A stretch of 64,000 nt of DNA from Skermania sp. ID1734. Lineage in GTDB: Bacteria > Actinomycetota > Actinomycetes > Mycobacteriales > Mycobacteriaceae. The position numbers were made by a program, and so were the translations under genes. The stretch lies in contig NZ_VLIY01000006.1 of the NCBI RefSeq assembly GCF_007489285.1, positions 1 to 64,000 of the forward strand. The letters are read 5' to 3'. The notes under the pieces are model-generated. The model ran no database searches and was not told the origin of the DNA. It worked only from the letters and a program-made list of their open reading frames with translations. How positions within the stretch are numbered: position 1 is the stretch's first letter; every line of letters begins with the position of its first letter. This document shows positions 28,655-33,112 of the stretch, one piece after another.

Positions 28655-29266
28655 TCAGCTGAACTTTTCTTTGATCTTGTCGATGATGTGATGCCCGGCG
28701 TGGTCCTCGTGCTTTACGGCCTTGTCGACGTCGGCCTCCGCCGCTCGCAGTTCGTGAGAATGCTTGGCGGCGCGGATCTCCCGAAGCGCGTCGTGCTCAT
28801 GGATCCGCATGATGCTCGAGTAGGTGTCCGAGACTATCTTGTCGATGGGGTGACGGTCGGTGATCTGCACTTGAGCGATCACCCCCGGCCGGCCAGGATG
28901 CAGTCGCTTGGTGATCTCCGTGAGCGAGCTCCAATGGGCCGGACTGTGCACGTCATCAGCACTGGCATTGGCACCGTCGGCGCTCGTCGTATCGGCGGAC
29001 GCGGCGATTACCGGGCCGAGTGGTCCGTCCAGGGTTTTCAGCACGTCCTTGAGCGCGGTGTCACCGAACTCGTCGAGAGGCACTGATTTGCCGGCATCGT
29101 CGCGGAACGCGAACTGGCCGTCGCTGACGTGTTCGATCACCGCAACTCCGAGCACGTCGATCGCGCCAGTGCTGCCCAGGTCGCTGAGCAAACGGTATGC
29201 CTCAGGAGCTTTGCACGGCTGAGGGACCTGCCACGTCAGCAAAATGACGTTGTTCTCGGTTGCCAT
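28655..29266 (-). CDS. Conserved hypothetical protein, DUF1269-like
   Basis: A 203-residue soluble protein. The N-terminal half has strands typical of a ferredoxin-like domain (VILLTWQVP, then IDVLGVAVIEHVSDGQFAFRDD) and resembles the DUF1269 family, an assignment I hold loosely. The C-terminal 70 residues are charged and helical (HDALREIRAAKHSHELRAAEADVDKAV), with many His, Lys and Glu. The ATG at 29266 is chosen; the frame is open upstream to 29503 without conserved sequence. Role unknown. Confidence 0.6.
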   Translation of the reverse strand: MATENNVILLTWQVPQPCKAPEAYRLLSDLGSTGAIDVLGVAVIEHVSDGQFAFRDDAGKSVPLDEFGDTALKDVLKTLDGPLGPVIAASADTTSADGANASADDVHSPAHWSSLTEITKRLHPGRPGVIAQVQITDRHPIDKIVSDTYSSIMRIHEHDALREIRAAKHSHELRAAEADVDKAVKHEDHAGHHIIDKIKEKFS

Positions 29267-29431
29267 GCCAGCGATGCTACGTCGATACCGCACCGCGGCC
29301 AGGAGATTCGAGATTCTTGTTGGTGGCACCAAAGGTTGCTGTCCGTAGTTGGGTGTGGCATCCAAATGCACAGGCAGGCGCGCGATCTGCTGGGGCGAGA
29401 AGGCGCCCGTCCACGTCGCTACCTTGAAGAA

Positions 29432-29944
29432 GTGAGCGTCGAACAATCGGGTGTCGTAACCGTACGAACCGCGCGATCGGAGGATGGTGCGGCGATCGGC
29501 CAACTCATCACGGACGTCTACGTCGGCGGAGGGTTCATTCCAGCGAACCAGCCCTACGCCGCGACGCTGGCCGATACCGCCGCGCGCGCAGCGGCCGCCG
29601 AGATCTTGGTTGCCGAACTCGATGGCGCAATCGTGGGCACTGTGACCATTGCGCGGCCCGGTTCGGCCTACGCGCCACTGGCACGTCCGGATGAGCTCGA
29701 GTTCCGCATGCTGGCGGTTGACACATCGGTGCGCGGTGGTGGCATCGGCACCATGCTGGTGCGGCGTGTGCTGGAGGTCGCCCGTTCCGAAAGCTATGCG
29801 GCAGTGGTCATCTCCACCATGGAAACCATGGTCGATGCCCAGCGCCTGTATCGAAAGCTCGGCTTCGCCCGGGTGCCGGAACGGGACTGGGATGTCGTTC
29901 CGGGTGTTCGGCTGCCCGTGCTAGCGATCGCTGTAAATGCTTGA
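29432..29944 (+). CDS. GNAT-family N-acetyltransferase
   Basis: A 170-residue GNAT acetyltransferase. The acetyl-CoA binding motif A is clear (LEFRMLAVDTSVRGGGIGTMLVRRVLE), followed by the QRLYRKLGF motif B. It transfers an acetyl group to an amine whose identity is unknown. The GTG at 29432 is chosen as start, with GAAGAAG upstream; the open frame to 29129 overlaps the divergent gene. The EncFtn-like gene follows 60 bp downstream on the same strand. Confidence 0.85.
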   Translation: MSVEQSGVVTVRTARSEDGAAIGQLITDVYVGGGFIPANQPYAATLADTAARAAAAEILVAELDGAIVGTVTIARPGSAYAPLARPDELEFRMLAVDTSVRGGGIGTMLVRRVLEVARSESYAAVVISTMETMVDAQRLYRKLGFARVPERDWDVVPGVRLPVLAIAVNA

Positions 29945-30004: not shown

Positions 30005-30391
30005 ATGGGCTTCGAGCAGTACCACGAGCCGGCTTCGGAGTTGCCTGCGCGGACGCGCACCTTCGCGCGGATGTGCGCAAACCTCACCGAGGAAGCCGAG
30101 GCGATCAGTTGGTATTCGCAACGCATGGCGGTCGAGCCGGATGAGACCTCGCGCGCGATCATGGCCAACGCGTTGACCGAGGAGTTCAAGCATTTCAGCA
30201 TGGATCTGGAGTTCCTGCTGCGCGCGACGCCCAAGTGGCGACAAATAGCCCGTGGGATTCTCTTCCGTGACGGCGACATCGTCGCGAATGGGGAGAACGC
30301 CGAGGAAGCCGCCGACGATTCGGACGGCTCGGGCCAACAGGCGCCACCGCCGTCGCTCGATATCGGTGGCCTGAAAGGTCAGCGGCAATAG
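30005..30391 (+). CDS. Encapsulated-ferritin-like protein with encapsulin cargo-loading tail
   Basis: A 128-residue protein that aligns with encapsulated ferritins (EncFtn, such as that of Rhodospirillum rubrum). Shared features are HEP near the N-terminus, then E30 and W36-Y37 (EEAEAISWYSQR), E60 and H63 (TEEFKH), the M.LE stretch and KW at 77-78. These include the expected ferroxidase ligands. A disordered linker (about 95-116) leads to a C-terminal SLDIGGLKG at 117-125, close to known encapsulin cargo-loading peptides. It should be an annular ferroxidase loaded into an encapsulin shell. No shell gene is in the window. ATG 30005 follows GGAAGGGA. Confidence 0.85.
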   Translation: MGFEQYHEPASELPARTRTFARMCANLTEEAEAISWYSQRMAVEPDETSRAIMANALTEEFKHFSMDLEFLLRATPKWRQIARGILFRDGDIVANGENAEEAADDSDGSGQQAPPPSLDIGGLKGQRQ

Positions 30392-30419: not shown

Positions 30420-31682
30420 TCAGTGGTGCTGGACCTCCCCGCTGTCGGACTCTGCTGCGATCACTTCCGGTTTGACGGCCGCCAGACCGGAGACGACAAA
30501 ACCGAACAACGCAACCACGCCCACGGCATGCGCCCAGGCGGCATCGGCAACGTTGAGCAGGCCGACCCCAAGGAGCAGGCACGCGATCGCTACGCGGGTC
30601 GACAGCGAGAACCAACTGCCGGATGGCGTCTCCGGCCGGGCGGGCGGCTGCTGCACGGACGACCGGTCCGGGTGCTGTGGTGTCACGTCGAATCGGCCGC
30701 GCAGGTCCAGCCGAAACAGCAGTGCCAGAGACGGGAGAAGCAGGACGGCACCGGCCAACACCGATATCGTCACCGCGATCAGTGTGCTGTCGGGAGCGGC
30801 GGCATCCTCGACGGTGAGTCCGGGCAACAGAACCGGGTATTGGGCCACGGCCCAGCCGACGATGATGGCCGCGGCTGCGACCGCGGCGGTGTAGCGGGCC
30901 GGCGCGAACCGATGAACCCAGACCAGCACCAGACTGGCAAGCCCACACACGCAGGAGACGATCAAAGCGACCAGCCCGCCGCCGCGCAGCAGGCCGTCCA
31001 GCAGACTGGGGGCGTCGGCGTGCAGAATCGGCAGTCCGGCCACCGCTGCAATCCCGGCAACTACTCCGGAAGCCAGTGCGCGCCAACGGAAGCGGTGCAC
31101 CAGATCCGATTCCTCGATGCGCTGTGCGTCCGCGCCGAGGTAGACCGCGGCGAGAAACGCCGACAGCACCACGGCGAGGATGCCGACCAACACGGAGGTC
31201 GGGTTGAGCCAACTCGTGAAAAGGTCACCGGCTGCGTTGCCGACGGGTACTCGACCGGAGGCAATGCCGCCCACCGCAGTGCCCATCGCGAATGGGGTCA
31301 AGGCACACGACGCCGAAAACACTGCGTCGATCGCGCGGCGCTCTCTGTCGTTGGCCGCGCCGGCGTCCAGTGCGTAGGTCGCGCCGCGGCAGATGATGCC
31401 AACCGCGGCAATGAACAATGGGATGGTCAAGGTGGACGCGATCGACCCGAACGCCACCGGGTACGTCGTCCACAAGACGGTAAGCACGAACACCAGCCAG
31501 ACGTGGTTCGCTTCCCAGACGGGGGCGATGGCATGGTGGGCGTGCTCCTGGAGCGCGGCGGCCTTGGGGCCCTTGCCCGCGGTCAGTTGCCATAGCCCGG
31601 CACCGAAGTCGGCGCCCGACAACACCGTGTAGGCGATCAGTCCGATCAGCACGAAAACCATCGGCACGTCGTAGAGCGCCAT
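30420..31682 (-). CDS. cydB: Cytochrome bd ubiquinol oxidase subunit II, CydB
   Basis: A 420-residue polytopic membrane protein. CydB motifs are seen at the N-terminus (GADFGAGLWQLTAG) and at WEANHVWLVFVLTVLWTTYPVAFG. With CydA it forms the high-affinity terminal oxidase that reduces oxygen to water with quinol. It starts inside the cydA stop (TAATG), so translation is coupled. The C-terminal 80 residues, with a Pro-rich stretch in a loop, are longer than in many homologues. Confidence 0.9.
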   Translation of the reverse strand: MALYDVPMVFVLIGLIAYTVLSGADFGAGLWQLTAGKGPKAAALQEHAHHAIAPVWEANHVWLVFVLTVLWTTYPVAFGSIASTLTIPLFIAAVGIICRGATYALDAGAANDRERRAIDAVFSASCALTPFAMGTAVGGIASGRVPVGNAAGDLFTSWLNPTSVLVGILAVVLSAFLAAVYLGADAQRIEESDLVHRFRWRALASGVVAGIAAVAGLPILHADAPSLLDGLLRGGGLVALIVSCVCGLASLVLVWVHRFAPARYTAAVAAAAIIVGWAVAQYPVLLPGLTVEDAAAPDSTLIAVTISVLAGAVLLLPSLALLFRLDLRGRFDVTPQHPDRSSVQQPPARPETPSGSWFSLSTRVAIACLLLGVGLLNVADAAWAHAVGVVALFGFVVSGLAAVKPEVIAAESDSGEVQHH

Positions 31683-33112
31683 TACGCACCGCCCTGACTC
31701 GGTACGACGACCGCTGCCCGGTGTCTGCCGGTGACCGGGGGAGCGGACTCGTCGCCATCGTCGATTGGATTCGATGCGAGCCGACGCAGAATCCAGGCGG
31801 TCGCTACGGCAACACCGGCATAGACCACCACGAGCACGCCGAAGGCGACCGGGATGCCGCCGGCTCCCGTCACAGCGTCAGCGGTGCGCATCACGCCGTA
31901 GACCACCCAGGGTTGGCGGCCGACCTCGGTGGTGACCCAGCCAGCGATCAACGCCACGCACGATGCCGGCCCGGCAAGAACCACCGCTCGAAAGAACCAG
32001 GGTGAGTTGGGCAGACGCCGACGCCGCGCCCAGACGATCAAATAGATCACCCCCAGCAGAGCGAGTGCGGAGCCGATGCCAACCATCGACTGAAACGCGA
32101 TGCGCACGACGTTCACCGGCGGTGCATCGATGGTGGGTATCTTGTCGAGACCGGCGACGGTGGCGTTGAATTTGTGAAACGCTAGAAAAGACAGCATTTT
32201 TGGGATTCCGATGCCGTAGCGCACCTCGCCGTCGGTGTAGAAGCCGAGCACGTGAATGGGTGCGCCGCTGGTCGTGTGGCCCAACCCCTCCAACGCAGCC
32301 AACTTGATCGGCTGCGAATCCGCCACATCTCTTGCGGCCCAGTCCCCGATCAGAACCTGCACCGGCGAAGCAAGCGCTGCCACCGTGAACGGGATGGCAA
32401 AAGCGGTGCGGTGGTAGCGATCCCAGCGCCCACGCAACCGCGACACGGCATAGGCCGACGCCAGGATGAACCCCGTCACGATGAAGCCGGCCAGATACAT
32501 GTGCACCAACTCGTGCCACAGAAAGCTATTGGCAAACAACGCCCGCCACGGCTGCACGTCCTCGACGCTGCCGTTCCGCATCGTGAACCCGGAGGGGTGA
32601 TTCATCCACGCATTGACCGAGATGACGGTGAACGATCCGGTGAATCCCGCGATTGCCACCGGAATGCCGGAAAGAAAATGCGCCCGCGGGCTGAAGTTGT
32701 CCCAGCCGTATATGTAGATGCCGATGAAGATGGCCTCGGCGAAGAACGAGAATCCCTCGATCGCGAAACCGAGGCCGAACACGCCTCCGAACGTGCCGGT
32801 GAAGTTGGGCCACAACAAGCCCATCTGGAACGACAAAATCGTTCCGGTGACGGCACCAATGGCAAACAGCGCTGCCATTATGCGCGTCCAGCGCCTGGCG
32901 AGGGTGCGGTAGAGACGATCACCTGTGCGCAGATATCGCCATTCGGTGAACAGGATCATTGCGGGAAATGCGATCCCGAAGCACACCAGCGGGATGTGCA
33001 CCGCGAACGCCAGTGCCTGCATTTGGCGCGCTTGCAGCAGATACTCCTGCAGCCCCGGAGGCAAGTCCGTCCGGAACCCACCGAACGCCATATGGATGTT
33101 CGAGCCTCCCAT
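31682..33112 (-). CDS. cydA: Cytochrome bd ubiquinol oxidase subunit I, CydA
   Basis: A 476-residue membrane protein. The N-terminal heme-ligand helix has H39 (FAVHIPLVCFG), and GRQPWVVYGVMRTADA near the C-terminus is the conserved CydA signature. The quinol loop is short, as in most actinobacterial enzymes. It carries the hemes b558, b595 and d. No cydDC genes follow here. The start ATG at 33112 is used; ATG 33091 is an alternative. Confidence 0.92.
   Translation of the reverse strand: MGGSNIHMAFGGFRTDLPPGLQEYLLQARQMQALAFAVHIPLVCFGIAFPAMILFTEWRYLRTGDRLYRTLARRWTRIMAALFAIGAVTGTILSFQMGLLWPNFTGTFGGVFGLGFAIEGFSFFAEAIFIGIYIYGWDNFSPRAHFLSGIPVAIAGFTGSFTVISVNAWMNHPSGFTMRNGSVEDVQPWRALFANSFLWHELVHMYLAGFIVTGFILASAYAVSRLRGRWDRYHRTAFAIPFTVAALASPVQVLIGDWAARDVADSQPIKLAALEGLGHTTSGAPIHVLGFYTDGEVRYGIGIPKMLSFLAFHKFNATVAGLDKIPTIDAPPVNVVRIAFQSMVGIGSALALLGVIYLIVWARRRRLPNSPWFFRAVVLAGPASCVALIAGWVTTEVGRQPWVVYGVMRTADAVTGAGGIPVAFGVLVVVYAGVAVATAWILRRLASNPIDDGDESAPPVTGRHRAAVVVPSQGGA

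What the first reader, a model, noticed from the sequence alone, without database searches (positions are those of the whole stretch)
30005..30391. Encapsulated ferritin with a cargo tail but no shell gene beside it
The protein has the EncFtn ferroxidase pattern (E30, W36-Y37, E60, H63) and ends in SLDIGGLKG, close to encapsulin cargo-loading peptides. Encapsulated ferritins usually sit next to their encapsulin gene; here the neighbours are a GNAT gene and convergent cydB, and no shell gene is in 64 kb. It may be a second cargo for a distant shell, or work unencapsulated.
Basis: partly seen in the sequence, partly recalled or inferred. Interest (0 to 1): 0.75.

Follow-up and report, generated by a model that had tools for sequence, protein, structure and literature searches.

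The report
Encapsulin-tagged ferritin with a distant shell
This bacterium carries an iron-oxidising ferritin bearing the tag that sends proteins into an encapsulin nanocompartment, and its only shell gene lies elsewhere in the genome next to a peroxidase, so the two enzymes probably share one compartment.

Summary
The gene at 30005-30391 (+) encodes a 128-residue encapsulated ferritin (EncFtn) with an intact ferroxidase site and a C-terminal SLDIGGLKG tail. No shell gene lies beside it. The genome does hold one encapsulin, on another contig, directly downstream of a DyP peroxidase that ends in SLNIGSLRR. The shell is of the mycobacterial Cfp29 type and keeps the tag-binding residues mapped in Klebsiella. 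In 78 informative related loci, 49 tailed EncFtn genes have a shell directly downstream and 27 tailless ones have none. The only two tailed genes without an adjacent shell are in Mycolicibacillus trivialis and Mycobacterium sp. 1274756.6. They are the window protein's sister clade, and both genomes also carry an unlinked DyP-encapsulin pair. The best reading is a secondary cargo for the resident DyP-type shell. The EncFtn gene probably came from an EncFtn-shell operon of the Micrococcales kind, without its own shell. Co-packaging is inferred, not shown. Secondary cargos encoded away from the shell are already known (M. xanthus EncC/EncD; proposed M. tuberculosis BfrB/FolB). What is new is an EncFtn with a core-type tag serving a peroxidase shell. 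It is a new variant of a known kind.

The parts
30005..30391 (+). EncFtn gene, 128 aa plus stop; preceded by a GGAAGGG ribosome-site-like stretch
   Evidence: PF22277 67 bits; PDB EncFtn matches; AlphaFold model matches EncFtn structures
30005..30283 (+). Ferroxidase core, residues 1-93: E30, Y37, E60, H63 correspond to R. rubrum E32, Y39, E62, H65; entry-site residues E29 and E32 correspond to E31 and E34; two of three putative exit-site residues differ (N55 for H57, K62 for E64)
   Evidence: alignment; residue roles from PMC5012862; residues checked
30284..30352 (+). Flexible linker, residues 94-116, disordered in its second half in the model
   Evidence: low pLDDT from residue 109; differs in length and sequence from M. 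trivialis
30353..30379 (+). C-terminal cargo-loading peptide SLDIGGLKG, residues 117-125 (followed by QRQ)
   Evidence: L, I, G, L, K match the five residues essential for loading in the Klebsiella DyP tag (PMC10960027)
29447..29944 (+). Upstream GNAT acetyltransferase (start approximate; lies in the ORF 29129-29944); neighbour, not part of the system
   Evidence: PF00583 57.8 bits
30420..33112 (-). Convergent cydB (30420-31682) and cydA (31682-33112); neighbours, not part of the system
   Evidence: PF02322 and PF01654

Best explanation
The gene encodes an EncFtn that is a secondary cargo of the cell's only encapsulin, a mycobacterial-type DyP shell encoded on another contig. The protein forms the EncFtn decamer ring with ferroxidase centres at subunit interfaces (inferred from homology). 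Its C-terminal SLDIGGLKG peptide binds the luminal pocket of the shell that also takes the DyP tag SLNIGSLRR. The ring would oxidise Fe(II) inside the shell and deposit iron there, while co-packaged or separately packaged DyP consumes peroxide. Shown by computation: family, tail, a single unlinked shell, conserved key shell residues, and a unique mycobacterial clade that keeps the tail without an adjacent shell. Inferred: expression, decamer, loading, shared shell with DyP, iron storage.
For: One encapsulin in the genome (PF04454, 345.7 bits), alignable over 1-263 to Cfp29 7boj at 421 bits, immediately downstream of a DyP ending DGSLNIGSLRRSNHR. The shell has R34, D38, D229 and T217, positions that contact or may contact the tag in Klebsiella (roles from PMC10960027). 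The tail has the L-I-G-L-K positions whose loss abolished loading there; a DyP tag with SLDIGSLK occurs in a relative (L014). Tail and adjacent shell are tightly linked: 49 tailed with shell, 2 tailed without, 0 tailless with shell, 27 tailless without (Fisher p 6e-19, not corrected for shared ancestry). The two exceptions, M. trivialis and Mycobacterium sp. 1274756.6, form a 97%-supported clade with the window protein, and both have DyP plus encapsulin elsewhere. In the trio the tail differs only conservatively (S/T, I/V, G/S, R/Q) while the linker has 8-9 replacements in 20 codons and 4 gap columns. 16 of 18 tailless-orphan genomes lack any encapsulin.
Against: No expression, binding or purification data. 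The trio is effectively two independent lineages, so the retention test is weak. Position 6 of the tag is G instead of S, and the shell's position 230 is L where Klebsiella has I. In M. tuberculosis the proposed secondary cargos BfrB and FolB load in E. coli but were not found in shells purified from the cell (PMC8635971). The genome may have gaps (56 contigs, though estimated 100% complete).
Confidence: 0.77

Rival explanations
1. The protein works unencapsulated in the cytosol as a soluble ferroxidase ring, and the tail is a leftover from an ancestor that had its own shell.
For: Close relatives without tail and without adjacent shell are common (27 of 78 informative loci), and most of the tested genomes have no shell at all, so the family can evidently act without encapsulation. 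The upstream genes differ between the window and M. trivialis, so there is no sign of regulation with the shell.
Against: In lineages that have left the shell the tail is gone, whereas the three mycobacterial-type genes keep it, and all three genomes have a shell. EncFtn oxidises iron but cannot store it without a shell (PMC5012862).
Confidence: 0.14
2. The protein does enter the DyP-type shell, but as a rare or condition-specific cargo that mainly competes with DyP for binding sites, with little role in iron storage.
For: Both tags use the same kind of site; secondary cargos in M. tuberculosis were not found in shells from log-phase cells (PMC8635971); the genome has other ferritins, including a BfrB whose end SGAPPAAGGAV matches the BfrB secondary-cargo consensus.
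Against: No data on abundance either way; a DyP hexamer occupies few of 60 sites per shell (PMC10960027), so competition need not be strong.
Confidence: 0.07
3. An adjacent or second shell gene dedicated to this EncFtn exists but is missing from the assembly.
For: The assembly is in 56 contigs.
Against: The gene lies inside a contig with other genes on both sides, and in every other tailed case the shell is directly downstream; here cydB is. Completeness is estimated at 100%, and both sister genomes show the same arrangement with one shell each.
Confidence: 0.02

Closest known systems
Core-cargo EncFtn (FLP-TP) of R. rubrum Rru_A0973 and H. ochraceum Hoch_3836
   Same: Same fold (TM 0.91-0.93 by target length), same ferroxidase residues, C-terminal SLGIGSLK-type tag
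   Different: 31-38% identity in the structural alignment; gene not beside a shell; two putative exit-site residues replaced; belongs to a separate, mostly actinobacterial subfamily that scores 76-85 bits on NCBIfam TIGR04535 against a cut-off of 125
Secondary cargos EncC and EncD of Myxococcus xanthus
   Same: Ferritin-like (EncC) cargo with a tag, encoded away from the shell gene, entering a shell that has another core cargo (PMC8229669)
   Different: There the core cargo is also ferritin-like (EncB) and loading is demonstrated; [quoted passage not shown]
BfrB and FolB, proposed secondary cargos of the M. tuberculosis DyP encapsulin Cfp29
   Same: Ferritin-family secondary cargo of the same shell type (PMC8229669)
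   Different: BfrB is a 24-mer ferritin cage with a different signal (consensus DGAPPAAGGAL, PMC6934571); the present protein is an EncFtn with the core-cargo type of tag
s-FLP, tailless short EncFtn (Nitrosomonas europaea NE0167, 3k6c)
   Same: Same fold (TM 0.91-0.94 by target length) and no shell gene beside the present one
   Different: s-FLP lacks a tag (PMC11202242); this protein has one and its genome has a shell

Membership tests
Encapsulated ferritin (EncFtn / FLP-TP) | Match to the EncFtn-like domain family above its cut-off | tested here: met
   PF22277 67.1 bits against 27
Encapsulated ferritin (EncFtn / FLP-TP) | Score above the NCBIfam encapsulin-associated ferritin cut-off (TIGR04535); a database threshold, not a biological definition | tested here: not met
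   77 bits against 125; shell-linked members of the same subfamily also fail (82-85 bits), so the model does not cover this subfamily
Encapsulated ferritin (EncFtn / FLP-TP) | Ferroxidase residues E, Y, E, H (R. rubrum E32, Y39, E62, H65) | tested here: met
   E30, Y37, E60, H63; invariant in 44 aligned relatives
Encapsulated ferritin (EncFtn / FLP-TP) | Two long helices with EncFtn topology | tested here: met
   Model mean pLDDT 85.8; best PDB matches are all EncFtn
Encapsulated ferritin (EncFtn / FLP-TP) | Decamer that oxidises Fe(II) | not testable with these tools
   Needs purified protein
Encapsulated ferritin (EncFtn / FLP-TP) | C-terminal targeting peptide | tested here: met
   SLDIGGLKG, residues 117-125
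Core cargo of a Family 1 encapsulin operon | Gene in the operon of the shell gene | tested here: not met
   Shell on another contig; neighbours are GNAT and cydB
Secondary cargo of a Family 1 encapsulin | Targeting peptide in a protein encoded outside the core operon of a genome that has a shell | tested here: met
   Tail here, shell and DyP on C54; definition in PMC8229669
Secondary cargo of a Family 1 encapsulin | Shown to enter the shell | not testable with these tools
   Needs co-purification
s-FLP (tailless EncFtn) | No C-terminal targeting peptide | tested here: not met
   Tail present

The most novel reading that the evidence does not exclude
A natural case of a cargo enzyme changing shells: an EncFtn from an EncFtn-shell operon lost its own shell and was taken over by a peroxidase (DyP) shell, so that one compartment holds both an iron oxidase and a peroxidase, with the peroxidase removing or using the peroxide chemistry of iron oxidation.
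Probability: 0.5. Interest if true: 0.68.

Novelty: new variant of a known kind. Interest (0 to 1): 0.52.

Why it matters
Mycobacterial-type encapsulins are studied for defence against oxidative stress, and whether they carry an iron-oxidising cargo is disputed, because the proposed ferritin cargo BfrB was not found in shells from M. tuberculosis. A small group of mycobacteria and relatives that carry an EncFtn with a core-type tag gives a clean place to test whether a DyP shell can also be an iron compartment. It also suggests that cargo and shell can be inherited separately, with the short tag as the only link, and the near-perfect pairing of tail and shell across the family (49/2/0/27) is a useful yardstick for finding orphan cargos.

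Tried and rejected
Chance tail: rejected. Missing dedicated shell: judged unlikely. FolB as a further secondary cargo in this genome: its end RDRDGSSR lacks the published FolB signal. An apparent EncFtn-shell fusion in L084 is an artefact of a run of N. L042, L060 and L149 were first sorted as exceptions: L060 has a shell and a divergent tail (GLNIGKMK), L149 lies at a contig end, and in L042 the shell scores low; none is in the window's subfamily, and none is a clear exception. A sigma-70 promoter and terminator scan near the gene found nothing above chance and is uninformative in this kind of genome. One-contact comparison with Klebsiella: position 230 is L here and I there, so contacts are conserved but not identical. 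Replacement of the resident shell by an EncFtn-type shell was rejected: the window's shell groups with DyP-type shells.

Full report
WHAT IS THERE. The window gene at 30005-30391 (+) encodes 128 residues. It matches Pfam EncFtn-like at 67 bits against a cut-off of 27. The nearest solved structures are the encapsulated ferritins of R. rubrum, H. ochraceum and others, and the best sequence match extends through its own tag SLGIGSLKG. E30, Y37, E60 and H63 stand at the R. rubrum ferroxidase positions E32, Y39, E62 and H65, and entry-site residues E29 and E32 are also kept (roles from PMC5012862; checked). Two of three putative exit-site residues differ. An AlphaFold model (mean pLDDT 85.8) superposes on EncFtn structures at 0.9-1.2 A, with a disordered tail.

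THE TAIL IS REAL. SLDIGGLKG occupies residues 117-125. In 8,646 six-frame ORFs of at least 90 residues from the loci then held, [ST]L.[IV]G.L[KR] near the C-terminus hit 105, all of them EncFtn or DyP. In the window only this ORF hits, out of 526. A published alanine scan of the Klebsiella DyP tag SGSLNIGSLK found the two leucines, the isoleucine, the second glycine and the lysine essential (PMC10960027). All five are present here.

THE SHELL IS ELSEWHERE. The assembly (5.12 Mb, 56 contigs, completeness estimated at 100%) has one encapsulin, at C54:24565-25317. The window starts at base 1 of contig C53. If C53 and C54 abut in the closest way, the gene and the shell are still about 54 kb apart. 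The shell aligns over residues 1-263 with M. smegmatis Cfp29 (7boj, 421 bits). Directly upstream of it is a DyP peroxidase ending DGSLNIGSLRRSNHR. The shell keeps R34, D38, T217 and D229, Klebsiella tag-contact positions, and T217 separates all 32 DyP-type shells from the 77 EncFtn-type shells compared. The window's shell groups with the DyP-type shells.

COMPARATIVE TEST. A scan of 84,980 species genomes returned the 80 best relatives out of 400. Two loci are uninformative, one with an N gap and one cut by the contig end. Of the other 78, 49 have a tail and a shell directly downstream, 27 have neither, none is tailless with a shell, and 2 are tailed with no shell nearby (Fisher p 6e-19, which treats related loci as independent). 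A few tailless loci have under 1 kb of downstream sequence. The two exceptions are Mycolicibacillus trivialis and Mycobacterium sp. 1274756.6, and they form a clade with the window protein at 97% SH-aLRT. Both genomes have a DyP-encapsulin pair elsewhere, with DyP tag TLTIGSLKG and EncFtn tag TLDVGSLKG. Of 18 genomes with a tailless orphan EncFtn, 16 have no encapsulin, and the other two also carry a tailed EncFtn beside their shell. So the tail tracks a shell in the genome, and in this clade the shell it tracks is the peroxidase shell.

ORIGIN. EncFtn is rare here: 3 of 401 genomes of the family and 2 of 396 of the genus of M. trivialis. The trio nests among Micrococcales EncFtn genes that mostly have their own shell; 100 columns cannot resolve deeper forks. 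Identity between the window and M. trivialis is 78% for EncFtn, 72% for the shell and 62% for DyP, which fits either common descent with many losses or transfer. A weak hint of shared position: the acyl-CoA dehydrogenase gene that converges on EncFtn in M. trivialis lies about 9.6 kb downstream in the window. The gene's GC3, 0.80, equals that of its neighbours, so a transfer, if any, was probably not recent, or came from a donor of similar composition.

SELECTION ON THE TAIL. Between the window and M. trivialis, the 12 tail codons show 6 synonymous differences and 4 conservative replacements. The linker shows 3 synonymous differences, 8 replacements and 4 gap columns in 20 codons. This is consistent with constraint on the tail, but there are few codons and effectively two lineages.

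OTHER CARGO IN THIS GENOME. BfrB (L159) ends SGAPPAAGGAV, close to the published BfrB secondary-cargo consensus DGAPPAAGGAL. FolB lacks its published signal. The genome thus has DyP as core cargo, a BfrB-type candidate, and this EncFtn with a core-type tag.

MECHANISM. Most likely the EncFtn decamer is held by its tails on the inner face of the DyP-type shell, oxidises Fe(II), and the shell retains the iron, as in known EncFtn systems (PMC5012862). Whether DyP and EncFtn share a shell, and whether DyP disposes of peroxide from iron chemistry, is inference.

VERDICT. Secondary cargos encoded away from the shell are known (PMC8229669). New here is an EncFtn with a core-type tag attached to a peroxidase shell, found in three genomes. 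I searched a library of open papers and found no report of it. That is not proof of novelty, since subscription journals are largely missing.

Noticed in passing
L056, L057, L059 (plasmid records), L055: Tailless 102-104 aa EncFtn-like genes, mostly annotated 'hypothetical protein', sit on conjugative plasmids of Bradyrhizobium and Rhodopseudomonas next to an MbfA iron exporter or heavy-metal P-type ATPase and RND efflux genes; a metal-resistance role without any shell is suggested.
   Followed up: partly
L072, L080, L089, L090, L094, L098, L109, L117, L118, L130 and others: A broad clade of tailless, shell-less EncFtn-like proteins in Arthrobacter, Bacteroidota, Verrucomicrobiota and Gemmatimonadota; most of the tested genomes have no encapsulin, so 'encapsulated ferritin' is a misnomer for them.
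   Followed up: partly
L071 and L122; L143 and L101: Paenarthrobacter sp. Z7-10 and a Solirubrobacterales MAG each carry two EncFtn genes, one tailed beside a shell and one tailless alone, a natural pair for comparing encapsulated and free forms.
   Followed up: partly
window 30005-30391 and L053, L061, L066: NCBIfam TIGR04535 (cut-off 125 bits) misses this actinobacterial subfamily, including members beside a shell (76-85 bits), so they are likely annotated as hypothetical.
   Followed up: yes
L159 (G000:C34:281297-281695): The genome's BfrB ends SGAPPAAGGAV, matching the published BfrB secondary-cargo signal; the same kind of ending occurs in relatives.
   Followed up: partly
L172 (G000:C25:9847-10275): A third ferritin-family match in the genome is listed with one in-frame TAA inside its open frame.
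   Followed up: no
L150 (G609, same family as the window's genome): Another genome of the family has an EncFtn of this subfamily directly upstream of its own EncFtn-type shell, so the complete operon has also entered this family.
   Followed up: partly
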